From: a virus
Length of the DNA: 64,000 nucleotides
Reading direction: 5' to 3' (one strand)
Virus record (IMG/VR): IMGVR_UViG_3300025362_000004
Coordinates: 1 to 64,000 of that record
Of the stretch, positions 8,270 through 63,394 are shown one piece after another. The first letter of the stretch is position 1; every line of letters starts with the position of its first letter. Position numbers and translations under genes: made by a program. The notes under the pieces were generated by a model that saw only the letters and a program-made list of their open reading frames with translations, did no database searches and was not told where the DNA came from.

Positions 8270-9475
8270 TTAAATTATTTCTCTTGAAATTGGAGTTACA
8301 GTAACATAATCTCCATTCATAATATCATAATTAGTATAGACTGCCTTTATATATATATTTTCTGAGTACTCGATCCCTTTTAATCAAACACTACTTACTT
8401 CAATAAATTCATTATTTTCGTCTAAACCTATACCATACTCTGTATAAATTGTTGCATTAAGTATCTGTGTAGTATAGACATCATAGCTACCCGATGCCCA
8501 AAAAATTCTAAAATCTGTAATAGTATAGTTGGCTCAAACTGCAGATGTTATAGGGTCCGTATCAATAATACCAGTGGAACCTATACTAAATCTATAATAA
8601 GTTCCACCGTATGTAGTCCCGTTACTAATATATACTCCTAATTGATATAAATCAGCTCAATCATCATAAGTACTTGTTCTTACAAGCCCGGGACCCTGTC
8701 CAAGAAAATATAATCCGTTTTCGTAAGCAGTCGTTTGTCCAGTTAATAAAATTAAATCACCTTCTTGGAGTTCGTAGCCATCATATACATCAAGTTCTGC
8801 AACCGTAGCTAATACAATGTTACTGTCTATTAAGACTTCAGCAGTATCATAATTATTTAAACTTCATGACACTTTGAAATAATTTGTTGTATTATTATAG
8901 TTATAAACATAAAAATATGTATCAATTGGGACTATAAAATTATTACCTTCTGAATTATTAATGTAGTCACCAGTAGCATCTCAATGTAATATATCGGGAG
9001 TATCTAAAGTCCCAATTCATCTAGCTGCTCAGTCATTCTTAGTAATAAAATTAACCGTCATGTCAACATTATATAACGGACTACCGCCATTTCAGTTTAC
9101 TACATATTTTGCTTCCGTAATAGAATTAACTTTTACATCATACCCATAATTAGCATTGTAATCGAAAGATAATACTCCTTCACCATTCCCATCTAACCAT
9201 CTTAATACATCTCTATATTCAGTTAAGGTTATGTCTTCGAAAGCAATTGGAAAACTAAACTCTCTAGCTTCTCTTGTCGTTCCTATAAAATAACTTTGAT
9301 TACCAAACTGGGGCGTTGTAAAATCGTGTGAGAAAGAAGGATTGAAAAATGTTAAATCAAGTCCCTCATTCACTACGAAACCTCCGAAATCGGCATTTAA
9401 TCTATAGCCGTCAAAAGGTGATGTTCCCGTATAGTCACTTTTCTTATAATTAAAACTTAAATAATTGTCTGCCAT
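8270..9475 (-). CDS. Distal tail protein (Dit-like, 401 aa)
   Basis: Start ATG 9475 with GAGGTG. The N-terminal ~125 residues (DGYRLNADFGGFVVNEG, REAREFSFPIAFEDITLTEY, RDVLRWLDG) have the typical pattern of siphovirus Dit N-terminal domains that form the hub ring at the tube end. The C-terminal part is beta-rich and may be a carbohydrate-binding or gp27-like extension. Under the standard code it would end at residue 127 (KYVVN); TGA=Trp extends it through WNGGSPLYNVD and NDWAARWIG to TAA. Lies directly after the tape measure, as expected. Confidence 0.8.
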
Positions 9476-9486
9476 TTACATCACCT

Positions 9487-12400
9487 CTATCGTTTAGTAT
9501 TCATATTTAACCCACGACGTGATATCGCTGTGTTAAATGCTTCTGCAAGAGTAACTCCTGCTGTTTTGAAATCTTGATTATTGTTTAATTTATTTGTTTG
9601 AATAGTTATATTTTCTACTACCACTGATGAACCACCTTTTCCGTCTATTGCAACTTTTGAAAGTATATCTCGTAAGTTTGCAAATAACTCAGTTTGACCT
9701 GCACTAAGAAAAGCTTCAGGATTTGAAGAAGTTCCGTGGACCATTGCCGGTCCAGTGTAATCAACTAATCCACCTTTTTTGTAAAGTTTTTTTCCATTTT
9801 GATATCTACCAACGCCATTCCAAAGAGCACTCGCTGTATCTTCAGCACTAACACTTGGGTCAAAATTGTTATTATTTCTAATCCAGTCTTTACCATCACT
9901 AGTTAATTCATTATAAGAGCTATATTGTTTTAATGCTTGTGTAATATTATTGAAATATTCTTCTCATTGACTCTCTTTAAATGCAATTGTAGCATTTTCT
10001 AAAACTGTATTTCCAAGAGTATCAAGATAATCCTCTACGCTCAAACCACTACTAGTAAAATCACTATAGGTCCCTCCCATTTCAGTTATTAAAGGTTCGA
10101 TATCTACTCTGTTTGGGTTATCTACGTTAGGTAGAGTTTGAGTAGTTGTAATCGGAGTTGTAGGATTATATACTTCTGGCAAGATACCAAATGAATCGTA
10201 ATTAGTTTGTTCAGTAAATGCAGTTCCTGCTCCGGGGTCTCTATTAACCCGTCCACCTTCCATTAACGGATTGACTGCTATTATAGGCTCAATTATATCC
10301 TCTCCAAGTGCAGTTAAACCAGCGTTGTACTCGTCTAATGTTATTCCTCCAGCTGCATATAGGCTATCTAAATAAGCTTTAGCTGCTGATACCCCTCCAT
10401 CTTCCATAGCTGTTACCATCGTAGTCGCTATGTTTTCTCAAATTGCTTCATACTCTGTTTTTTCAAACTCAAGTCTATCAAGTAAATCATCTCTAGATTG
10501 TTCTCTTAGAGTGTCTGCAGCATCTTCATCAAGATTAATTAAGTCTTTTCTTAAATCTTTTGCTTTTTGACGAGAGGCTTCATCAGTAGCTCCTTCAAGT
10601 CTTTGAAGTTGTTTAACTATATCTTCTCTTGTTTGTTCTGTATCTCTTTTTTCTTCTAGTCTGTCAAGAGCATCAAAGTAATCTTCATAAGTTTTAATTT
10701 TTTCATCTAGCATTTCTTCATTATTTTCTACTGCAGCATCTTTAACTGTAATGAAACCATCTATTATGGTATCTACATACTCTTGACTCTTAGTTTGATA
10801 CTTGTCTAAGTAATCTTCGTAATTACCCATAAGTGTTTGATAAAGGTCAATATTTTTAATAGTTACTACTCCATTTATTATTTCAAATATATCAGACATT
10901 TTATATCCACTATCTTCTATTGCCTTATTATATTCTGTCTTTAAATCGTTAAGATTTTCTTCAGTTTGTTTTATAGTTTGTCCTGTTGTAATAATTAATA
11001 AATTCATCTGTTTTTTAGAGATTTCACTATTTTCTATACCCATATCTTGTAACTTAGTATATTGTTTATATATTTCGTTATATTTAACTTGAGTTTTTGT
11101 TAACCCTTTTAAAGAACCATTATATGCTAAAAGCATTTCCAATCTTGTTATTTCTAATTGAATCCCAGCTTTTTCCTCTTCATTGACAACAGCTAAACTA
11201 GCTCTTAATACTAATAAATCAGATTCATATTGTTTTTTAATTTCTTGTAAATTTTCCACAAGATACAAACCTAAATCAGTTCCCTCTTTAAAGGCTTCAA
11301 CAAAATCTTCATTTTTGAATAAATCTGGATGGTCGTCTACGAAATCATAGAAATCTTCGTTAGACATTTCGCCATTTCTATACTTTTCTTGTGCTTCTGC
11401 GATGGCTGTAATTGAATTTTCAATCTTATCTAAAGATTGAGCTGTAGTTTTTGTACTTTCTCCCATAGCCATATTAAATAATTTCGCTCTTAAAACTTCA
11501 TCATCTGTTGCTAGTCCCAATTCTACTAAAGCTTGAGTATAAGCCATCGTAGGCCCAACCCCATCATCCATTATTTCAGAAGTTCTCTTGACTAAACCTT
11601 TAAAAACAGTAGTTGCATCAAGTTCATACTCACTTAATAATGTTTCAAATGCATCAAAAGTTTCAACGCTAAATCCAAACTCATTCAAGAAATCTCAAAA
11701 ATTATCATCTTTAGTTTTTGTTTTAAAGTTCTCATAAATATATTCTAAGTCTTTAAATTGTGTAATTAAAGCGTTAAAAGCTGCAGAGTCCAATTGTAAA
11801 TTTTCTTTTAAATTAGAAAAGATTTTATATTTATCAGACAATGATTCCGCTTCAGCCATTTTGTCTTCTAAATCATCGAAGTTCCCTATAAATTTACTTA
11901 TAACCGCCTCTATATTAGAATCAGTATATCATGCCTCTAAATCACTTTTAGTCATCCTACTATCTGTATCTAATAGTCCAGAACTTTCTATATATTTAGT
12001 TAATGCATTTTTTTGGTCTGTAGACATATCTTCGCCAGTATCCCATTCATATTGTAATGAAATATATGATGTAGCAGCCTTAGCAAATTCTTCTTGACTT
12101 AATTTTTCTTTCATTGCTTTATTTCATGCTCTTCTAAAAACTTCTGCCATATTCTCAATCATTTCTTGTTGATTGTCCCTCATAGCTTTGTTCAAAGCTT
12201 TCATTGTTGCATCCCAATCAACTTCGCCGTTTAGAGTAATAAAATATTTTCCATTTTCTAGGGTTTCTATTTCATCTCTTAATACTTCAAGAGCCTCTAA
12301 ATCTTCATCTGTTTTTATTGATTTCGAACTCAATTCATCATATTTATCAATTAGTTTTTGTAATGATTTATTTGTTTTGTTTAATTCATAGTTCGCTGCA

Positions 12401-14895
12401 GCCATTTGTTGAGAAAGCTTATCATAAGATATAGTCGCTTTCCCAATAACCTTTATTAACGCAATGACTCCAACTACTATTGCAGCTATAATCGCTATGC
12501 CCGCTAATACCATAAGGTTTCAAGCTAATTGAACCGCTATAGCTTTTATTTTCAATGCTATCGCTTTCTTATTAAGTACACTTTTTATTCTCTGAAGTCC
12601 TATATTTTTTATAGTTTGCAACGCTTGTTTTTTATCGGTTACAAGTTGAGCTTGGGCAAAGTATATACTCTTTATACTCAAGGCGACTGAAGTAGCCTCG
12701 CCTGCATTTTCTTTTGCCTTTAACATAATATTTACTTTTGTTCAAAAAGCTTTCAACTTGCTTGCCGCTATTAGACCAATAATTAAAGTCATCATTACTT
12801 GGCTTTGTTGCCCAAAAATACCAACGACCTTATTTAATCCATTTAATAATCCTGTGATTGTCTTTATGATCCCTATCATTAAATCGCTACTAGTAATAGT
12901 GGTAATAAACTTTTGATAAGCATTTTGTAAATTAGTTAATGCAGCTTGCATACTTTCCATGTATTCAAGATGTTGAGCGCTAGTAGCGCCAGCTGACGCT
13001 TCTGACTCTTCAACTAATTCTAATGTTCTATCGAAATTTTGGAATACAGCAAGTAAACGAGATTGTTGACGTGTACCAGCAAGCGCAACAGCTGTTGCAG
13101 CCTTTTGGTTTGTGTTTAACGTATCCCACGTTCCACCAACTTCTCTTAAAACTGTTTCCATTTCTCTAAATTGTCCATTCGCATCCATTAAAGAAACACC
13201 AATAGACTTTAATGCTCCCTCAACACGACTGACATCCATTCCATCTTCCAGTGTTTTTCCATAATCACTAATTTCACGCATACGCGCTAAAACTGTTTTC
13301 ATCGCAGTACCAATTGATTCTGGTGCTTCACGAGTTGTTTCGACACCTTTCGCAAGCATACCAAGTGCAAAGTCCATAGACAATCCAGCGATATTTGCTT
13401 GTGCTGCATATTTACTAAGACCAACTGCAAGTTCTTCATAACTTGATGCTGATGTTGCAGCTAAAGCCGCGAACTTATCTGAGACAGACAATGCTTTTTC
13501 AGCCGCTAATCCAAATCCATTAATTGCAGATGTTAAGTAGTCAGCTGATTCCTGCGCTGAAATTCCAGCTACACGAGCCGCCTTTGCCGCAACTCTTGTT
13601 AGGTTAATAACATCTGTTAAAGACTTACCTTGACGGAAATAAACCGTAGAAAGTTTAGCGATCTCAGTTGTAGCGAATCCAGTTTCTACAGCTAATCCTT
13701 GGAATGTTTCAATTAGCCCTCAAGTTTCTTTTCTATTCAGTTGTGTAACAATAGCCATTTCTGTTAAGGCACTATCTAATTCCTTAATAGTTTTAATTGT
13801 TTCTCGATAAACTCTACGTAATAATTGTATTGCTAAACCATAATTTAATATGTTTTTAGCAGCCTTACCAATTGACGTACTATTAGAAGTCGTTGCAGTA
13901 GTATTTTTATTAGTTAATTCTGTATTCTCTCTTGTTTTTTTATTTTTTATAGATTGTTGGTGATTGTATTCAGCTGTTAATTTAGATATCGCTTGTATAT
14001 TTTTTTGAATTTCAATTCCTTCGTTGCCCTTAATCCCACCTTGTGCTTCTTTTTCTTTCTTTATGGCAAGGGCAACTTTGTCTCGTTCGAGATTTGCTTG
14101 GTCTACTATACCCTGAGCTGCTGATATTTGTTTCCCTTTTTCTTTATAAGCATTTTTTCTATCTATAATATCCTTATCTTCTTTTGCAAAAAATGCGGCC
14201 GAAGCTTGACTTTCTTTTTCAAAAGCCACAGTTGTCATTTTTATATTGTTTTCTGAAAGTGCTAATGCTAATTCCTGCTCAGCAAGTGCTTTAGCTTTCT
14301 TAGTAACTTCCTCTCCTTTCCTTTGAGCTTCAAGAGTTTTTAAAGTTTCAATTGTTAAATTTTTCTGAATAGTCTCAATTTTTTCTTTCATAGCAACAGC
14401 TGTTGCATAGGACTTAGCTTTTTCTCCAGATGCACCCAATAAACCAGGAGACTCTTTATCAAAAAACTTAGCTTTGGCACTATCACTTGTTACTGTTTTA
14501 CCTTTCTTATCTGTTTTTAATCCGAAAGCAGTTTTACTAGAGTTCATTTTAGCTGCTTTTAACTCACCTACTACTTTTTTAATAACACCTTCAGCCTTCG
14601 CCATATCTGCTTGCAATTCTTTACTAACGGCACTCATCATGTGTTTACGCAAACCATCAGTAGTATTTAAAAGCTTTTTGTATTTAGCTTCCATTTGAGC
14701 CATTAATTCACTACTCATACCACCTTTATTGATAGTCGCTATTAACCCTTTCATTTCATTTTCTATCAATTTTATTTTTGCTTTAGCATCTTTGCTATTT
14801 AAAAACTTTTTAGAGGTTTTTAGAAGGTCTTTAATATCTTTTACACCGTCTACAACATATTTAAGTTTAACTTCTTGAACTATTTGGTCTCCCAT
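9487..14895 (-). CDS. Tape measure protein (1802 aa)
   Basis: The longest gene in the window. N-terminal ~400 residues are Lys/Ala/Glu-rich coiled coil (KLKYVVDGVKDIKDLLKTSK). Then comes a tape-measure core (ISAQESADYLTSAINGFGLAAEKALSVSDKF, PESIGTAMKTVLARMREIS), hydrophobic segments near 13.4-12.4 kb (GIIKTITGLLNGLNKVVGIFG, MVLAGIAIIAAIVVGVIALIKV) and a C-terminus typical of the family (KGGLVDYTGPAMVHGTSSNPEAFL). Eight or more in-frame TGA codons join the segments (RKETWGLIE, KAFWTK, QLAWNLM, RRAWNKA, LEAWYTD, NFWDF, EAIWEN, SQWEEY). It sets tail length and is threaded in the tube. Confidence 0.92.
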
Positions 14896-46485: not shown

Positions 46486-46567
46486 GGGGTTGTAAGGGTT
46501 CGACAGTATTGTAAACCAACAAACGGAGCAATGCTGGACAGGGGTTCAACTCCCCTCAATTCCACCA
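46486..46567 (+). ncRNA. Minimal tmRNA-like RNA: tRNA-like domain only
   Basis: The 5' part (GGGGTTGTAAGGGTTCGACAG) and 3' part (CTGGACAGGGGTTCAACTCC, then CCTCAATTCCACCA) match the ends of bacterial tmRNA. The acceptor GGGGTTG/CAATTCC has G3-U70, the AlaRS identity pair; the TTCGAC D-loop signature and T arm are present. Where tmRNA has ~250-300 nt with the tag reading frame, here a 7-bp AGTATTG/CAATGCT stem closes a loop of only 17 nt. It could be alanylated and bind SmpB but cannot encode a tag. Confidence 0.75.
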
Positions 46568-46619: not shown

Positions 46620-47526
46620 ATAAGAAAAAGAAAAAAATAATTTTAGTCGCCTGAGCACTAACAGGTTCCATAATCTTAGGAATAATTAACCCGTATGAGT
46701 AGGAATAAAATATCAGCGATAGACCATTGGGAAAGATACGGATAGTTCGCGCCGTTCTAAAGACTAAATTATAATTTTCTCTATTGCACTGAGTGTTAGG
46801 TTCCCCCTAAGCCTAGCCCCGAGTGGAGCAGAGAAATACTGCATAGTCAGAGTAACGCCTGTATAAATCTCGCGTTTGAAAAAAGGGAATGGAGAGTAAC
46901 AGCCCTAGAAAAGACTTTCCGCGTTCGGGCTTGTGTTACTAATTTTATGGAGCCTTGCTACCCAGCAAAATCAAAAAAAATAGCGATAGGTTGTGAGCTT
47001 AATGAGGTTGAAAGAATACCAAACCAAACTCTCCTATATGTCGCATAGCTCAATTGGATAGAGCAACTTTAAATAAGAGACAGGGTTTGATTCCCCAAAC
47101 GGCACCGTGGCAGTAGATGGAGCTGACTGGATAAAACTACCGAGTGTGAGGACGCACTATAAACACAGTCACCTGACCAGTTTGAAATCTGGTGTATCAA
47201 AATTTATTGCGTGGTCTTAGGAAAGGCGCCCCAATAGGGGAGAAGTTGGTTCGATTCCATCCGCAACGGGGTAGCTCCCCATGTCCTGCAGGACTATAGT
47301 CTTTTAGTGTTTTATATACTCTTAATAAATCACTGTGTATGGGTTCCACCAGAAAACCTAGGCCTAAGAGTTCGGCCTTCAGAATTGAATCGGAGGAGCG
47401 GCAACCTCGGCGCAGAAAACCGCCCTTAATTTATAAGAATCTGCATTATCGTTTATATAAGACGACTGGGCGTCTATAAAAATTCCCTATACTTTAAAAG
47501 CTATCCTTTATTGGATAGCTTTTTTC
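46620..47526 (+). ncRNA. Large structured RNA A (~900 nt)
   Basis: From promoter to terminator there is no ORF of note. Many stems are visible, e.g. AGTAACAGCCC with GGGCTtgTGTTACT (~46890-46960), GTTAGG/CCTAAG, CCCC/GGGG. It contains tRNA-like pieces: a canonical D arm TAGCTCAATTGGATAGAGCA with TGTCG/CGGCA acceptor at ~47039-47104 but no proper anticodon arm; and an ACCAG-TTTGAAAT-CTGGT arm. Size, phage location beside tRNAs and embedded tRNA-like element are reminiscent of GOLLD-type RNAs; no alignment could be run. Confidence 0.6.
47496..47526 (+). terminator. Terminator of RNA A
   Basis: AAAGCTATCC/GGATAGCTTT then TTTT. Confidence 0.88.
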
Positions 47527-47661
47527 TATAACATTCCCTCCCAATAATGAATATTCATTTTTAATATTCAATAATAAAAATAAACAAAAATATGCCTCTA
47601 AAAGCGAAAATAAAAAATTTTCGTATTTAGCCACGCAAATTATCGATTATCGATAAACCAA

Positions 47662-48039
47662 TAAAAAAGAAGACAACACTTTGGTTTCCACACCATACAT
47701 GTTATCTTCTCTTTTGCCACTTTTCGCTGGCAACGCTGGATACGTATCTCGAGCTCGTTCATCCTAGTTAAACGTCGTTGGTAAACAAGTCTTGGGTTAG
47801 TCTCGACGGCATGATGTTTTCGCGCACATGCTTTACTACACCTCACATTTTATAGAGCTAGAGGTTTCCTACCGCTTTTATGGTACGTTTAAAGCTGGTT
47901 AAATTCCGTGTCCTTTACGAGACAAGTCGTCGCTACTTATTGAGCAATAGTCAAATCTCTTTTGCCGACTAAACAAGGCAGATTATTCCCTTTGTATAAA
48001 GAAAAATACTCAAGTAATTACTCTCTTTCTTTATCTTTA
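47662..48039 (-). ncRNA. Structured RNA C (~380 nt)
   Basis: Minus-strand promoter at 48046-48074, no ORF, and a strong terminator at 47662-47710 (AGAAGATAACA/TGTTGTCTTCT then T6). Internal sequence is richer in GC than the genome and has several dyads (CATGTGCGCGAAAACATCATG, CCAGCG...). Not recognised as RNase P, 6S or tmRNA. Confidence 0.55.
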
Positions 48040-48074: not shown

Positions 48075-48106
48075 ATCTAAAAAAATAAAATATTTTTGTG
48101 GCTCTA

Positions 48107-57601: not shown

Positions 57602-57934
57602 CTATCCGCAGATGAAATATACGCCATCACCAAGTATAGAATTTATAAGATATAATCGACCACGTATTTCATAAAGTTCTACTAAAAATTCCTTAGTTTC
57701 TACATAATCTATTTCATCAAAGTCTCTTTTAATAAGCATAGCATTTATTCTATTTTCAGTTTTTCTAATATATTCACTCACATCTTCGATTGCTAAACTT
57801 ATATCTTCTAACTCTGTATCTTGGTTATAGGCAATACTATAATTTTCAAGTATATATTGAACTGTGTCTGTATTCCTTGACATAGAAAATATTGTTTCAC
57901 CTGTTTTTGTTTTAAACGTTAAATATGCACTCAT
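57602..57934 (-). CDS. Hypothetical protein (110 aa)
   Basis: MSAYLTFKTKTGETIFSMSR; helical middle (EDISLAIEDVSEYIRKTENR; ETKEFLVELYEIRGRLYLIN). Helical-bundle pattern. Unknown. Confidence 0.62.
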   Translation of the reverse strand: MSAYLTFKTKTGETIFSMSRNTDTVQYILENYSIAYNQDTELEDISLAIEDVSEYIRKTENRINAMLIKRDFDEIDYVETKEFLVELYEIRGRLYLINSILGDGVYFICG

Positions 57935-57964
57935 TTTTCATCACTCCTTTTACTTTTATACTTT

Positions 57965-57993
57965 ATTATATCATAATCTAAATAAAATTACAA
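57965..57993 (-). promoter_or_regulatory. Promoter of 57602 gene
   Basis: Minus strand AGATTTGTAA, 17 bp, TATAAT. Confidence 0.75.
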
Positions 57994-58033
57994 ATCTGGT
58001 TGTGTTATTTCAGAAGAAAAAGAAAAGTTTAGT

Positions 58034-58056
58034 TACACCGAGCGGCGACTTGGCTT
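58034..58056. repeat. ACACCG-GCGGCGAYTT element, copy 3
   Basis: TACACCGAGCGGCGACTTGG between divergent promoters; related to the elements at 50282 and 51822. Confidence 0.5.
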
Positions 58057-58097
58057 CAATAAAGGCTTTAACTCTCCTAAAAATTTGGAGTATAGAC

Positions 58098-58126
58098 TTG
58101 ATTTATTTTATAGGTTATGATATAAT
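58098..58126 (+). promoter_or_regulatory. Promoter of 58157 gene
   Basis: TTGGAGTATAGACTTGATT, 17 bp, TATAAT then TATATTATAAAGATAAG. Confidence 0.82.
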
Positions 58127-58156
58127 TATATTATAAAGATAAGAAAAGGAGTTACT

Positions 58157-58534
58157 ATGAATTATTTTCACGTCGATAAAACAGATAATAAATGGGGTCC
58201 AAGATGTAACTGCCTTGGATATGCTTTGAACACTAAAGAATGGGTTTGTTTTGACCGTTTTAATCAAAGTTGCTATGAAGAATTAGTTTCTGATTTAGAA
58301 GCAGATTTTGAATGGACTCGTATATCTAAAAAAGACATGATTTTAGGCAAAGATTATGTAGCATTAAGATTTGCTGGAAATGACTATCATTTTATGTGGC
58401 GTGGTAAAAAAGGACACTGGAGACATAAGATGGGTAGACAACCAGTTGAAGCAATTTCACAAAAAGAAGTATTTAGTAGGTATTGGTATGGAGATTATTT
58501 TGGAACTATCTTCTTATTTGAAGTAAAAAGATAA
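58157..58534 (+). CDS. Papain-like (NlpC/CHAP-type) fold protein (125 aa)
   Basis: PRCNCLGYALNTKEWVCFDR with candidate catalytic Cys followed by GYAL; NDYHFMWRGKKGHWRHKMGR has the His motif (DYHF..., HWRHKMG) seen in small papain-like amidases and peptidases. Intracellular (no signal peptide). Might cleave a host peptide or act as an early lysis/anti-defence factor. Confidence 0.6.
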   Translation: MNYFHVDKTDNKWGPRCNCLGYALNTKEWVCFDRFNQSCYEELVSDLEADFEWTRISKKDMILGKDYVALRFAGNDYHFMWRGKKGHWRHKMGRQPVEAISQKEVFSRYWYGDYFGTIFLFEVKR

Positions 58535-58668
58535 AGCGCCGAGGAGTGACAGGCGGGTATAAAAGGTCAAAGTTGGGTAGGGTTATTGATGTGCTGGCAT
58601 AGTAAAGGGGATATAGCAGTATTTTATGTTTAAATCCGAATCGTTGTCGAACAAATCATAAACCAAAC
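58535..58668 (+). other. Non-coding 3' region or small RNA
   Basis: No credible ORF. GC-richer than its neighbours, ends in the 58669 terminator. Either a long 3' UTR or a processed sRNA. Confidence 0.4.
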
Positions 58669-58698
58669 GGAGAGTAGAAATACTCTCCACATTTTTAT
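58669..58698 (+). terminator. Terminator
   Basis: GGAGAGTA-GAAA-TACTCTCC then ACATTTTT. Confidence 0.8.
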
Positions 58699-58710
58699 AG
58701 TGATTTAGAT

Positions 58711-58739
58711 TTGATTTTTTTATTAGATTATGTTATAAT
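58711..58739 (+). promoter_or_regulatory. Promoter of methyltransferase gene
   Basis: TTTAGATTTGATT, 17 bp, TATAAT. Confidence 0.8.
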
Positions 58740-58770
58740 TATATTATAAGAGATAGAAAAGGAGTTAAAA

Positions 58771-59487
58771 ATGAGAGATTATTCAACATACTTCAATTTA
58801 ATGAGTGCTAACTTAAAAGAGAAAGCCGACTTTATAATCAAAGAGTTAGATAACGAACGCTATGATATAGTTTATGACTTTGGTTGTGCTAATGGCGATT
58901 TAACAAGATTATTAGCAGAGCAATTTCCTAATATTAAGTTTATTGGTATTGAGGTAAATGAAGAAGTTCGTAAAATAAATCAAAAAGAAAACATTTTTAA
59001 CAATATATATTACAACAGGAATATGAGTGAATTTACAAAAAATACTATGGTAATTTTTTCAAGTGTATTACATGAAATATTTAGTTTTATGGAAGAAAAT
59101 GAGATTATAAAATTACTTAATCAATGTAGACAAGCAAAATCTATTTTAATTAGAGATATGCTTTTTACTGATACTGAACTAATTAACTCATATGAAACAA
59201 ATGAACATGAAAACTATGTAAATCAATTTTTTAATGGATTAAAGCAAACAAATCAAACTTTTGCTCATTTCTTGATGAAAGTTAGATATAAAATTAATTG
59301 GTTTGAAGAATTAAAAGAAGATTATTTTGCAACAGATTGGGATTTAATACTTGATATGTTTAAAAATGATTATACCATCAAAGAACATAATTATTATATA
59401 AATGAATATCTTGCAAAGGAAATTCCTGATTTAGAAAAATATACAAAAACGACACATATAAAATTATTGTTGAGGAGGAAAGATTAA
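58771..59487 (+). CDS. Class I SAM-dependent methyltransferase (238 aa)
   Basis: YDIVYDFGCANGDLTRLLAE is motif I (DxGxxxG type); FIGIEVNEEVRKINQ follows as motif II; MVIFSSVLHEIFSFME is the motif IV region. Small-molecule type (no DNA-methylase catalytic motif such as DPPY or PC). The C-terminal ~100 residues form an extra helical cap. Substrate unknown. ATG 58771 after AAAGGAG. Confidence 0.8.
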   Translation: MRDYSTYFNLMSANLKEKADFIIKELDNERYDIVYDFGCANGDLTRLLAEQFPNIKFIGIEVNEEVRKINQKENIFNNIYYNRNMSEFTKNTMVIFSSVLHEIFSFMEENEIIKLLNQCRQAKSILIRDMLFTDTELINSYETNEHENYVNQFFNGLKQTNQTFAHFLMKVRYKINWFEELKEDYFATDWDLILDMFKNDYTIKEHNYYINEYLAKEIPDLEKYTKTTHIKLLLRRKD

Positions 59488-59654
59488 TGGCTATAGTTAA
59501 TTCAAAAGGTAAAATAAAAGCATTACCAGTTCTTTCAGTAGAACAAAAAAATAGAGTTTTAGAAGTTAGAGGCAAATGCTGGGACAAGCCTGTATCAATG
59601 TGGAAGAAAATGCACTTTGATAAGAGTAAAATATCTTTTGTAGGCAAGAGATAA
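59487..59654 (+). CDS. Hypothetical protein (55 aa)
   Basis: TAATG overlap with the methyltransferase, GGAGGAAAG ribosome site. MAIVNSKGKIKALPVLSVEQ...CWDKPVSMWKKMHFDKSKIS. Basic; TGG Trp. Confidence 0.6.
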   Translation: MAIVNSKGKIKALPVLSVEQKNRVLEVRGKCWDKPVSMWKKMHFDKSKISFVGKR

Positions 59655-59672
59655 AAAACTACTAATGTAGAT

Positions 59673-59701
59673 TTGATTTTTATATCAGTTTATGATATAA
59701 T
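59673..59701 (+). promoter_or_regulatory. Promoter of RNA B
   Basis: TGTAGATTTGATT, 17 bp, TATAAT then TATATTATAAAGATAAG. Confidence 0.82.
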
Positions 59702-59708
59702 TATATTA

Positions 59709-60613
59709 TAAAGATAAGAAATAAATATTTTTATCTTCGGTTGAGATACCCTACGGCACAGGTCGTTAAAAGAGGCGTGTTATCCGCCATACGGCACAGG
59801 TCGTTAAAAGGAACTAAGGCGAGCCATACCCGCGTGTGGTGTAACTCCACCAAATATGGTTTCTCCATGGTAATCGCCGCCTTATGAAAATGATATTTAA
59901 GTAATAAAGATACGGGTTTATACATTCTCCCAGCGATAAAAAATGTTTTGCGTTAAACTCTTATACAGAAAAGGGTGGGCTTAAAGGCGGGTCAGCATAA
60001 TGGTCTGGGCGTGTGGCGTCAGTAAAAATCCATGTGGCAGTTGTGGCTATGTCAATAGAAAATGTCATAAGTAGTAATACTTTCATTCGAAAGACGTAAA
60101 AATTATAGTGTTACGCAAAATTAGTAGAGAACACTTAAAATAAACGATACTGACATGATTATATGTTAAATAACACAGTTCAACAGGTTAGATTCAAACC
60201 GTCGCTGAGAGTAAGAGTCGTGTCTAAGGAAGCACTCTACCTCGCTTGAAGATTAAACACTAGCGAGTAAGAAATAAGAAAAGCGCTTTGGCGAAAATCC
60301 AAATGAGTCAACATAGAGGTGTTGGCCTAGAGCAAACTAGGTAGGGAAAACAACGCTGAGAGTTAGAGTTGCGTGTATTGATTAACCACTTTACTTTAAA
60401 CACTCTACCGTAAGGTCTGGAAGCTGTTACCTTATGAGCAACTATATTAAAAACAGCGTATTATTTAATTGCCTGTCGAGGAAAAGTAATATTAAACTAT
60501 ATGAGAATGACGACACGAATAAAATCCTTTCCAAAGGACTGCCCGCGATAAAGTGAACGGCGCAACGGCATGCGAAAGAAGACATCAAGGTTGGAAACTT
60601 GGTGTTTTTTTTT
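59709..60613 (+). ncRNA. Large structured RNA B (~900 nt)
   Basis: No coherent ORF between promoter and terminator, though flanking DNA is densely coding. The 5' domain has a perfect direct repeat TACGGCACAGGTCGTTAAAA (starting near 59749 and 59789). Two later segments share CGCTGAGAGT(A/T)AGAGT, each followed by an ACTCTACC strand that can pair (~60204 and ~60353). Local hairpins include CTTTCATTCGAAAG. Size and repetition suggest an ornate phage RNA of the GOLLD/ROOL kind, unverified. Confidence 0.6.
60582..60613 (+). terminator. Terminator of RNA B
   Basis: CATCAAG-GTTGGAAA-CTTGGTG then nine T. Confidence 0.88.
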
Positions 60614-60635
60614 ATGAGTTTTTGGAATATAAGAT

Positions 60636-60664
60636 TTGCTTTTTTTTTAAATCTATGATATAAT
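60636..60664 (+). promoter_or_regulatory. Promoter, 60.7-62.1 kb operon
   Basis: GGAATATAAGATTTGCTT, 17 bp, TATAAT. Confidence 0.78.
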
Positions 60665-60709
60665 AAAGTATAAAGATAAAAATATACTATTTTTGTGAGG
60701 TGTTGAAAT

Positions 60710-61093
60710 ATGAATAAACGATATACATTATTCCTTGCTATGGCGGGGACATATGACCCAAACTTAATAACAAGCAATTTAGTGCCTGTGGAATATGATT
60801 TCACAAAAATAAAACGGTCTTATCGTAAAGTGAAAAAAATATTGAAATATAATAATGTTGTAATAGAAATTCACGATAGACTGTTAGGTTTTAAAATTCC
60901 ATATATTTTAGTAATACCTGCAAAAGGAGTAGATAATACTCTATGGTATATGGAAAGAGGTTGGGTAGAAATAGATAAAAAATATGCTTATTTTAATAAG
61001 CGAAAAGAATTGAAAAGAAAAGTACCAAGAGAACATATAATACAATTAGACAATAAAGAATTATTAAATGAATATTTAGAAGGGAATGATTAA
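60710..61093 (+). CDS. Hypothetical protein (127 aa)
   Basis: MNKRYTLFLAMAGTYDPNLI after GAGGTG. Basic middle (KIKRSYRKVKKILKYNNVVI), mixed fold, ending LNEYLEGND. Unknown. Confidence 0.6.
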   Translation: MNKRYTLFLAMAGTYDPNLITSNLVPVEYDFTKIKRSYRKVKKILKYNNVVIEIHDRLLGFKIPYILVIPAKGVDNTLWYMERGWVEIDKKYAYFNKRKELKRKVPREHIIQLDNKELLNEYLEGND

Positions 61094-61095
61094 AA

Positions 61096-61362
61096 TTGGC
61101 AACTAAATTCAAAGAACTAATGAAATTAAAAGGTTATACACAAACACAACTAAGCAAAATTAGTGGTGTTGCTCAATCCAATTTGAGTATTTATTGTAAT
61201 CACAGAGAAACACTAGAGGTATCAACAATGGTTACTCGAGCAAGATTGGCAGGCGCTTTTAGTATGACAGTAAAAGAATTTGAAGAATATTTAGATTTAG
61301 AACCTGCAACACTAATCGCATCAAATAAACAAACAGGCAACTTTACATTACACAAAAACTAA
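61096..61362 (+). CDS. XRE-type HTH regulator (88 aa), TTG start
   Basis: ATKFKELMKLKGYTQTQLSK-ISGVAQSNLSIYCNHRETLE is a Cro/C1-type helix-turn-helix (residues ~5-60), followed by FSMTVKEFEEYLDLEP. TTG at 61096 is the only start near the N-terminus of the domain. Small repressor or activator size. Confidence 0.8.
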   Translation: MATKFKELMKLKGYTQTQLSKISGVAQSNLSIYCNHRETLEVSTMVTRARLAGAFSMTVKEFEEYLDLEPATLIASNKQTGNFTLHKN

Positions 61363-61374
61363 GAGGTGAAATAA

Positions 61375-61650
61375 ATGCCATTAACAACTACAAAGATTTT
61401 TGATTATCTCAACAAAAATGAATTAGCACACCAAGTACACATAAGAAACGATGAGATAATTTTTTATCATTGGAATAGGAATATGACAGATTTAATTAAA
61501 TCTGTTGTTTTGCACAATGACAAAATAGAACAAGTATATTATTCAAGGAACATAATTCCCATGTTATATACTTTTATGAATAGTGGAATAGTAAATGATT
61601 TTACTGGAGCAGAGAAGTATGTTAGGGATAAAAGAATTTATGCAAGATAA
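61375..61650 (+). CDS. Hypothetical protein (91 aa)
   Basis: MPLTTTKIFDYLNKNELAHQ after GAGGTGAAATA. Alpha/beta (VHIRNDEIIFYHWNRNMTDL). Overlaps the next gene by ~30 nt. Unknown. Confidence 0.58.
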   Translation: MPLTTTKIFDYLNKNELAHQVHIRNDEIIFYHWNRNMTDLIKSVVLHNDKIEQVYYSRNIIPMLYTFMNSGIVNDFTGAEKYVRDKRIYAR

Positions 61651-62083
61651 AGAACAACTTGTGTGTGCTATAAAATATTTATTAGATGTTGGACTACCTG
61701 AGAAATTAGTAGTTCTTGTTACTCAAGCAAAACAACCATACGTTAATAAAATTAAAAATGGTAAATTACATAGAAATACAAAAATAGAAGAAGGTTTTAA
61801 ACTAAATTCTGAGCAACAAAATAAATATGAAATCGTTAAAAAGATATTATTTATGCCTGAATTACCTACATCAGGTATAGGAGAGCAAGATGTTATTTAT
61901 ATGCAATTATTAAAGTTTTTTATGATACCGAAAGACAAAATAATTGAACTTTATAATAATTTAGCAAAAGTTAAAGTTAGTAGGTTATTATTAAAAAAGA
62001 AAATTGACTTAGGAAACTTTGATTCAGAATTAATTGGAGTAGATAAAAAAGAATATCTGGAATTAATGATAGAATTTCTGTAG
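61619..62083 (+). CDS. HTH-like protein (154 aa), start uncertain
   Basis: Chosen ATG 61619 follows GGAG with 9-nt spacing; ATG 61640 is an alternative. LPEKLVVLVTQAKQPYVNKIKNGKLHRNTK resembles an HTH (QPYVNKIKNGK as recognition region). The C-terminal part is helical (DKIIELYNNLAKVKVSRLLL). Follows an XRE gene in the same operon. Confidence 0.52.
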   Translation: MLGIKEFMQDKEQLVCAIKYLLDVGLPEKLVVLVTQAKQPYVNKIKNGKLHRNTKIEEGFKLNSEQQNKYEIVKKILFMPELPTSGIGEQDVIYMQLLKFFMIPKDKIIELYNNLAKVKVSRLLLKKKIDLGNFDSELIGVDKKEYLELMIEFL

Positions 62084-62090
62084 TGTAGAT

Positions 62091-62119
62091 TTGATTTTTT
62101 TGTGAGTTTATGATATACT
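62091..62119 (+). promoter_or_regulatory. Promoter of 62168 leader and phosphatase
   Basis: TGTAGATTTGATT, 17 bp, TATACT. Confidence 0.78.
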
Positions 62120-62167
62120 ATATATAGAAAGATAGAAAAGACTATCTTATTAAAAGAGGTGAAATGC

Positions 62168-62278
62168 ATGAAAAAAGTAATACGATTATTTAGTTATAAT
62201 ATTAGAACAGTTGGGCAAAACCCTAGTTTTTCAGCGCACCTTGATTATATGAGACAAATTTCTGTGAGTAGATACTAA
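62168..62278 (+). CDS. Leader peptide-like ORF (36 aa)
   Basis: GAGGTG ribosome site before ATG 62168. MKKVIRLFSYNIRTVGQNPS...MRQISVSRY, basic. Followed directly by a terminator hairpin and then the phosphatase gene; layout suggests a leader peptide or attenuator, though it may simply be a small protein. Confidence 0.5.
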   Translation: MKKVIRLFSYNIRTVGQNPSFSAHLDYMRQISVSRY

Positions 62279-62299
62279 CACGACCATAATAGGTCTATT

Positions 62300-62326
62300 A
62301 GTCCACAGAGATGTGGACTTTTTTTA
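62300..62326 (+). terminator. Terminator/attenuator
   Basis: AGTCCACA-GAGA-TGTGGACT then T7, between the 36-aa ORF and the phosphatase gene that has no other evident promoter. Confidence 0.85.
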
Positions 62327-62348
62327 TTAAAGAGAAGGAGAGGATAAT

Positions 62349-63113
62349 ATGAATAAATATTTTGTATTTGGTGATTCACACGGGCATTATGAAGCACTAA
62401 TTTCAAGCCTCGAAGCCGCAGGTTTCGATATAGATAACCCTAATCACATGATAATTGGTTGTGGAGATTACTTTGACAGAGGAGATAGAAACGCACAGAT
62501 ATATAATTTTCTTACTTCTGAAAAACTGATTGGAAGGGTATATCTTGTATATGGCAACCATGACGCAATGCTAAAAGATTTCTTAAGCAAACAAAATGAT
62601 GGCGTATTTAATGCGACATATAATGGCTTAAATAAAACTATTGGAAATTTTGCACAAGTAAGTTGTAATTCAAATATGTTGATGTATGATGGCGATTTTT
62701 ATATTAGTAAAATTAAACAAAATTATCCAAATCTAATGAAGTTCTTACAATCAATGGAAGATAGTTTTACATTAGATGAATACATATTTACTCACGCGGG
62801 ATTAAAGTATGAAAATATGTATGATACTTGGGCTAAACCAATTTGGGTAGTAGACCATTGGGCTAATACACCAACATTTGTAAATGAGTTTAAATCAGTT
62901 GGTAATTATTTAACTGAAGGAAAGAAATTTGTATTTGGACATTGGCATGCTAGAAGATTAAGAAGTGATTTCGGATTAGAACCAAGTAACGAGACATTTA
63001 AGTATAAAAACTTTATTGGATTAGATGCTTGCACTAACGCAAGTGGTTTCGTAAATGTTTTAGTAATTGAAAGCGATAATTTACCTCAAGTTAATAAAAA
63101 TTTGGAATATTAG
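62349..63113 (+). CDS. Calcineurin-like (PPP) phosphoesterase (254 aa)
   Basis: YFVFGDSHGHYEALISSLEA (GDxHG), IIGCGDYFDRGDRNAQIYNF (GDxxDRG), YLVYGNHDAMLKDFL (GNHD), IFTHAGLK (H) and FVFGHWHARRL (GHxH) give the full two-metal site of PPP-family protein phosphatases such as lambda phosphatase. GGAGAGGATA ribosome site. May dephosphorylate host proteins or nucleotides. Confidence 0.9.
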   Translation: MNKYFVFGDSHGHYEALISSLEAAGFDIDNPNHMIIGCGDYFDRGDRNAQIYNFLTSEKLIGRVYLVYGNHDAMLKDFLSKQNDGVFNATYNGLNKTIGNFAQVSCNSNMLMYDGDFYISKIKQNYPNLMKFLQSMEDSFTLDEYIFTHAGLKYENMYDTWAKPIWVVDHWANTPTFVNEFKSVGNYLTEGKKFVFGHWHARRLRSDFGLEPSNETFKYKNFIGLDACTNASGFVNVLVIESDNLPQVNKNLEY

Positions 63114-63315: not shown

Positions 63316-63394
63316 TGGGATGTGGGCTAATTTGGTAAGCCACCTGCTTTGGGAGCAGGGCATCGTGAGAGTTCAAGTCTCTTCATCCCAACCA
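63316..63394 (+). tRNA. tRNA-Pro(UGG)
   Basis: Acceptor TGGGATG/CATCCCA, anticodon loop TTTGGGA, encoded CCA. Confidence 0.92.

What the first reader, a model, noticed from the sequence alone, without database searches (positions are those of the whole stretch)
59709..60613. Second ~900-nt RNA B of similar length but unrelated sequence
Same layout (palindrome-free promoter, no ORF, strong terminator). It carries a perfect 20-bp direct repeat near its 5' end and a duplicated CGCTGAGAGT motif, each with a nearby partner strand, suggesting modular repeated domains. Two large RNAs in one phage would be unusual.
Basis: partly seen in the sequence, partly recalled or inferred. Interest (0 to 1): 0.75.

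Follow-up and report, generated by a model that had tools for sequence, protein, structure and literature searches.

The report
Orphan 900-base untranslated phage RNA
A large bacterial virus carries a free-standing stretch of about 900 bases with its own start and stop signals for transcription but no protein, one of at least four such RNA units in this virus, with no known relative and no proven structure or function.

Summary
The unit is real. Window 59709-60613 has a near-consensus copy of this phage's own promoter (56.2 bits, joint 4th of 41 sites), no credible ORF under codes 11, 4 or 15, a strong terminator, and a separate promoter for the next gene. Base composition resembles the phage's GOLLD RNA, not its genes. 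The 21-nt and 31-nt direct repeats exceed all 40 shuffles. It is very probably an untranslated ~900-nt RNA; transcription is inferred, not shown.

'Large structured RNA' is not supported by folding: B folds no better than shuffles (z +1.6 without terminator), while this phage's GOLLD (-3.6) and most ROOLs do better. It matches no Rfam family, ROOL, GOLLD and OLE included, and no relative was found, so covariation could not be tested.

'Two large RNAs would be unusual' does not hold here: this 123.6-kb SPbeta-like phage also has GOLLD, two ROOL-like domains before it, RNA A and a ~370-nt minus-strand unit. Two of 35 related records carry ROOL plus a GOLLD match below Rfam's cut-off. Best reading: an orphan of the large phage RNA kind, mechanism open.

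The parts
59668..59716 (+). promoter of RNA B (phage-standard type; -35 TTGATT 59673-59678, -10 TATAAT 59696-59701)
59709..60613 (+). RNA B, inferred untranslated transcript of about 900 nt
   Evidence: promoter, terminator, no coding frame, composition; transcription itself not shown
59711..59737 (+). 5'-terminal hairpin (10 bp, 7-nt loop)
   Evidence: z -2.87, 4 of 200 shuffles as good
59752..59772 (+). direct repeat copy 1: hairpin ACGGC-ACAG-GTCGT plus TAAAAG
59790..59810 (+). direct repeat copy 2, identical 21 nt
59815..59884 (+). predicted branched stem closed by TAAGGCG/CGCCTTA
   Evidence: z -1.33, 17 of 200 shuffles as good, so weak
60203..60241 (+). repeated module copy 1: CGCTGAGAGTAAGAGT ... 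CACTCTACC
60354..60409 (+). repeated module copy 2: CGCTGAGAGTTAGAGT ... CACTCTACC
60574..60613 (+). intrinsic terminator of RNA B
60631..60679 (+). separate promoter of the downstream gene (60710-61093), which marks the end of unit B
   Evidence: 34.3 bits
46640..47525 (+). RNA A, second non-coding unit of the same promoter type; holds a decayed tRNA-Lys-like stretch about 47040-47106
47660..48030 (-). third non-coding unit (about 370 nt, minus strand) from a promoter at 48079; terminator-like end seen by eye only

Best explanation
RNA B is an independent, untranslated phage transcript of about 900 nt. It is made from the phage's ordinary strong promoter, ended by an intrinsic terminator, and probably protected at its 5' end by a terminal hairpin. 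It acts as an RNA. The most likely way, by analogy with GOLLD and ROOL in the same phages, is as a long-lived scaffold or particle RNA made during infection. In that view its duplicated hairpins (ACGGC-ACAG-GTCGT twice; the GAGAGT/ACTCTACC module twice) are repeated contact sites for copies of itself or for a protein. Shown here: unit boundaries, lack of coding, repeats beyond chance, company of other large RNAs. Inferred: transcription, stability, function as RNA. Speculative: oligomer or particle.
For: Phage-standard promoter, joint 4th of 41 sites; 26 of the 41 lead to an ORF within 60 nt, B does not (next ORF +978 nt, with its own promoter). Terminator z -5.09 and 5' hairpin z -2.87. No coding frame in codes 11, 4, 15. 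Composition A .34 C .18 G .22 T .26, close to the phage's GOLLD (.36 .15 .22 .27) and unlike a gene beside it (.43 .09 .15 .33). Direct repeats beyond 40 shuffles. Same genome has GOLLD at 82645-83156 (150.4 bits) and ROOL-like domains at 81517-81769 and 81928-82217. B lies about 2.7 kb before the tRNA island that starts at 63316, the setting PMC12286853 gives for GOLLD (section 7 read).
Against: Folding gives no support: z 0.00 with terminator and +1.63 without it (56 of 60 shuffles fold at least as well); mean z 0.11 over 120-nt windows; ensemble spread larger than in 19 of 20 shuffles. No homologue in any collection searched, so no covariation and no sign of long-term conservation. No transcript data. 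The partner-strand repeat alone is at noise level.
Confidence: 0.5

Rival explanations
1. A long regulatory or decoy RNA without an ornate fold: the repeated hairpins and the GAGAGT/ACTCTACC modules bind a protein or small RNA several times over, and the rest is spacer.
For: Two exact hairpin copies 38 nt apart and two diverged module copies; weak overall fold.
Against: No extended complementarity to the phage's own genome: best antisense-type match scores 16 against 15 for one shuffled query. The host is unknown, so host targets were not tested.
Confidence: 0.2
2. A decaying remnant (of an older RNA, insert or gene) that happens to keep promoter and terminator and no longer does anything.
For: No relatives; no fold signal; RNA A in the same window holds a decayed tRNA-like stretch.
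Against: Promoter among the best in the genome and terminator intact. Composition is far from decayed AT-rich coding DNA (C .18 against .09). The exact 21-nt repeat means recent duplication or constraint.
Confidence: 0.16
3. A ROOL or GOLLD so diverged that the Rfam models miss it.
For: The same genome has ROOL-like domains that score only 31.7 and 19.7 bits, so divergence in this phage is strong.
Against: Rfam ROOL and GOLLD models searched at E up to 10 over the whole record hit only the 81.5-83.2 kb locus, not B. No nhmmer or local-alignment link of B to that locus.
Confidence: 0.08
4. A hidden protein gene or several small genes.
For: Short frames of 40-64 aa exist in code 11; this phage seems to read TGA as Trp in late genes.
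Against: No frame of quality in codes 11, 4 or 15.
Confidence: 0.03

Closest known systems
GOLLD RNA (RF02032)
   Same: Phage-borne, over 800 nt in many members, often near tRNA islands (PMC12286853, section 7 read); a copy lies 22 kb downstream in this phage under the same promoter type; like composition.
   Different: No covariance-model match of B at E up to 10, no sequence similarity to the local copy, no fold signal while the local GOLLD has z -3.55, no tRNA called in B.
ROOL RNA (RF03087)
   Same: Large non-coding RNA of SPbeta-like phages of this clade, found in 5 of 35 related records.
   Different: Model of 574 positions against about 900 nt; no model match of B at E up to 10; the core TAATCAAT of the ROOL-like domains is absent from B.
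OLE RNA (RF01071)
   Same: Large non-coding RNA of Bacillota (abstracts in the listing).
   Different: No OLE match in this phage at E up to 0.01.
RNA A of the same window (46640-47525)
   Same: Same promoter type, similar length, non-coding, weak fold signal.
   Different: No sequence similarity; A holds a tRNA-Lys-like stretch and none was found in B.

Membership tests
ROOL RNA | match to RF03087 covariance model (gathering score 99.1 bits) | tested here: not met
   No match of B at E up to 10 in a whole-record search; none in cmscan of 57900-62500 at E up to 5
ROOL RNA | octameric RNA-only nanocage | not testable with these tools
   needs mass photometry or cryo-EM
GOLLD RNA | match to the conserved 3' domain (RF02032, 150 bits) | tested here: not met
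   Only 82645-83156 matches in the record at E up to 10
GOLLD RNA | phage setting near tRNA island | tested here: met
   tRNA array from 63316, 2.7 kb downstream of B; about 40 tRNAs in the record
OLE RNA | match to RF01071 | tested here: not met
   no match in G000 at E up to 0.01
large phage non-coding RNA (kind, not a family) | own promoter and terminator, over 500 nt, no coding frame | tested here: met
   transcription itself not shown
large phage non-coding RNA (kind, not a family) | extensive secondary structure with covariation | tested here: inconclusive
   Covariation untestable, no homologues; single-sequence folding no better than shuffles. Of 5 known ROOLs folded, one also had z above -1, so the test is weak

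The most novel reading that the evidence does not exclude
RNA B and RNA A are founding members of new large phage RNA families, and this SPbeta-like phage runs a set of at least four large non-coding RNAs (A, B, the minus-strand unit, and a ROOL-ROOL-GOLLD composite) under its standard promoter. That would mean such phages collect, duplicate and recombine large RNA modules much as others collect protein genes.
Probability: 0.3. Interest if true: 0.78.

Novelty: new variant of a known kind. Interest (0 to 1): 0.48.

Why it matters
GOLLD and ROOL form RNA-only cages whose function is unknown (PMC12286853, abstract and sections 4, 7, 8 and 9 read). A phage that carries several large RNAs of different sequence, some joined end to end, would give natural comparisons: which parts are shared, which are swapped, and whether the RNAs act together. 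B itself is a clean, well-bounded unit that can be made and probed in a test tube.

Tried and rejected
Rejected as homologues: 31 IMG/VR stretches with the double hairpin motif, most of which read by eye as repeats in coding DNA; nhmmer with B gave no hit in any of them. Twelve GTDB stretches with the GAGAGT motif, all chance by nhmmer, best E 1.3. A weak alignment of B to a strand of G014 14096-14565 (z 6.3, best of 352 gap strands, about 0.06 by my own estimate after correction; the stretch holds a tRNA on the other strand). Similarity of the 5' part of B to 16S rRNA was a thought only; Rfam at E up to 5 lists none. A Pistol-ribozyme-like hit at the end of RNA A is weak (E 0.23) and was not pursued.

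Gave nothing: downstream protein 60710-61093 as bait in IMG/VR and phages; capsid-region protein as bait in IMG/VR; terminase alignment in GTDB.

Limits: the first alignment test had gap costs too lenient and was redone (then 62). Shuffle counts are small (20-60 in most full-length tests). Whole-record comparisons used 12 of 97 phage records, two of them not to their last base.

Full report
Setting. The window is part of a 123,582-bp IMG/VR virus record. Its DNA polymerase III alpha is about 42% identical to that of SPBc2 and relatives, its terminase is of the same broad group, and it carries about 40 tRNAs and a tmRNA. It is an SPbeta-like phage of unknown host.

The unit. B lies between a 55-aa ORF that ends at 59654 and an ORF that starts at 60710. 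Its promoter is a near-copy of a box repeated over the genome. A weight matrix built from twelve of these boxes, B left out, gives 41 sites over 14 bits; B scores 56.2, tied fourth. Of the 41, 26 lead to an ORF within 60 nt. B does not: the next ORF starts 978 nt on and has its own promoter at 60631. The seeds came from a BLAST with B's promoter, so the ranking is somewhat biased to B. The 5' end can form a 10-bp hairpin (z -2.87), and the end is an intrinsic terminator (z -5.09, 0 of 200 shuffles as good). Two other non-coding units of the phage also show a 5'-terminal hairpin, less clearly (z -0.62 and -1.74), and RNA A does not. That 5' hairpins stabilise RNAs is recalled from general knowledge, not from a call.

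No protein. Frames inside B under codes 11, 4 and 15 are short and score as non-coding. Codes 4 and 15 were tried because a remote relative of one structural protein lies in a phage of the code 15 clade, and because late genes of this phage are broken by TGA in code 11 and whole in code 4. Base composition of B is like the phage's own GOLLD and ROOL-like stretches and unlike the gene beside it.

Repeats. Self-comparison scores 22 and 17 against at most 14 in 40 dinucleotide shuffles. The first repeat is a hairpin with an ACAG loop and a TAAAAG tail; both copies fold in the local centroid and in the full-length minimum. In the twelve phage records the repeat motifs occur without mismatch only in B; matches elsewhere have two or more mismatches and look like chance.

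Structure. B folds no better than shuffles: z 0.17, 0.00 with and +1.63 without the terminator. RNA A without terminator gives -0.11, with it -1.20. Known RNAs in the same test: local GOLLD -3.55, five ROOLs -3.26, -1.58, -3.50, -0.88 and -5.55, a GOLLD 3' domain -0.79, the two local ROOL-like stretches -0.52 and -2.50 (run cut off after 14 of 22 rows). In 120-nt windows the mean z is 0.11 for B, 0.08 for A, -0.80 for the GOLLD locus and -0.30 to -0.78 for three coding stretches. Ensemble spread of B is larger than in 19 of 20 shuffles. One ROOL, one GOLLD domain and one ROOL-like stretch also lack a signal, so this does not rule a structure out, but it gives no reason to assert one. Whether A and B share a topology could not be tested.

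Relatives. None found. blastn against 50,697 phage records: nothing at 1e-5, and three chance-level hits at E 3 with a limit of 5. Plasmids: nothing. Exact and gapped motif scans of IMG/VR: nothing real. 96 IMG/VR records, 95 reached through terminase relatives and one through the polymerase: no match at E 0.01 or better (50 records, best E 0.0197 over 20 bases, 46 records). nhmmer without filters over 12 records and 108 loci: only B itself; over 17 further loci: best E 6.5. GTDB motif scan: 12 chance hits. Rfam: no family; ROOL, GOLLD and OLE models searched over the record miss B. The tools state that records very near the window's own may be left out of their answers, so near-identical copies may exist.

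Company. The claim that two large RNAs in one phage would be unusual does not hold for this clade. In this phage a unit of about 1.87 kb at 81330-83195 of the record ends in a GOLLD 3' domain (150.4 bits, threshold 150) and has two stretches before it that match the ROOL model weakly but beyond chance (E 5.9e-6 and 0.005), both holding GTAATCAATC, which lies in the ROOL model's core. One of the other 11 records has a relative of that ROOL-like part (G017, E 2.8e-8). Of 35 related records searched, 5 have ROOL over the cut-off; 1 has GOLLD over the cut-off and 3 have it at E below 0.001; two, G008 and G013, have both, their GOLLD under the cut-off (106.5 and 97.2 bits). I dropped 15 of the 50 records, the shorter ones for the most part, before those counts. 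Library searches (listings only, apart from PMC12286853 sections 4, 7, 8, 9 and the PMC5643018 abstract) did not show me a report of a phage with more than two such RNAs; that is not proof of absence.

Verdict. A real, well-bounded, non-coding unit and an orphan. It works, if at all, as an RNA.

Noticed in passing
G000 81330-83195 (L017:17330-19195): Single unit with a phage-type promoter: two tandem ROOL-like domains (31.7 and 19.7 bits) followed by a GOLLD 3' domain (150.4 bits); looks like a ROOL-ROOL-GOLLD composite.
   Followed up: partly
L017:18714-18812: The GOLLD linker holds a tRNA 3' half followed by a 5' half, between direct repeats AAACAATACAT, as if a tRNA were circularly permuted (by eye; weak tRNA hit of 24 bits).
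   Followed up: no
window 2670-29415, minus strand: Late genes are broken by TGA under code 11 and whole under code 4 (for example 1802, 890, 679, 599, 513 aa). Early genes look standard. No tRNA with anticodon TCA was called by ARAGORN in window or L017.
   Followed up: partly
window 46486-46567: 82-nt stretch that matches both ends of the tmRNA model (65.1 bits) with no mRNA part, just before RNA A; a full tmRNA lies at G000 77588-77979.
   Followed up: no
window 46640-47525 (RNA A): Non-coding unit with a tRNA-Lys-like stretch that has lost its anticodon arm (about 47040-47106), and a second T-arm-like stretch near 47250 seen by eye.
   Followed up: partly
window 47660-48030, minus strand: Third non-coding unit from a promoter at 48079(-), with a 5' hairpin and a terminator-like end seen by eye.
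   Followed up: partly
window 58535-58700: About 150-nt non-coding stretch ending in a terminator-like hairpin; shares AAGGGGATAT.GC.GT with the start of the ROOL-like unit, not significant (26 of 200 shuffles as good).
   Followed up: partly
L160:3164-3318 (G017 83164-83318, minus strand): A piece of OLE RNA (102.5 bits, model 437-594 of 616) within the tRNA array of an SPbeta-like phage record; 1 of 40 records searched.
   Followed up: partly
L147 about 9800-10330, L150 about 8700-9300 and the matching part of G008: ROOL in these phages is preceded, behind one promoter, by a non-coding stretch of some hundred nt that is shared by G008 and G014 but replaced in G013: looks like module swapping.
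   Followed up: partly
L018:3009-3083 (G000 87009-87083): c-di-GMP-I riboswitch (49.1 bits) in the phage, behind a weak phage-type promoter.
   Followed up: no
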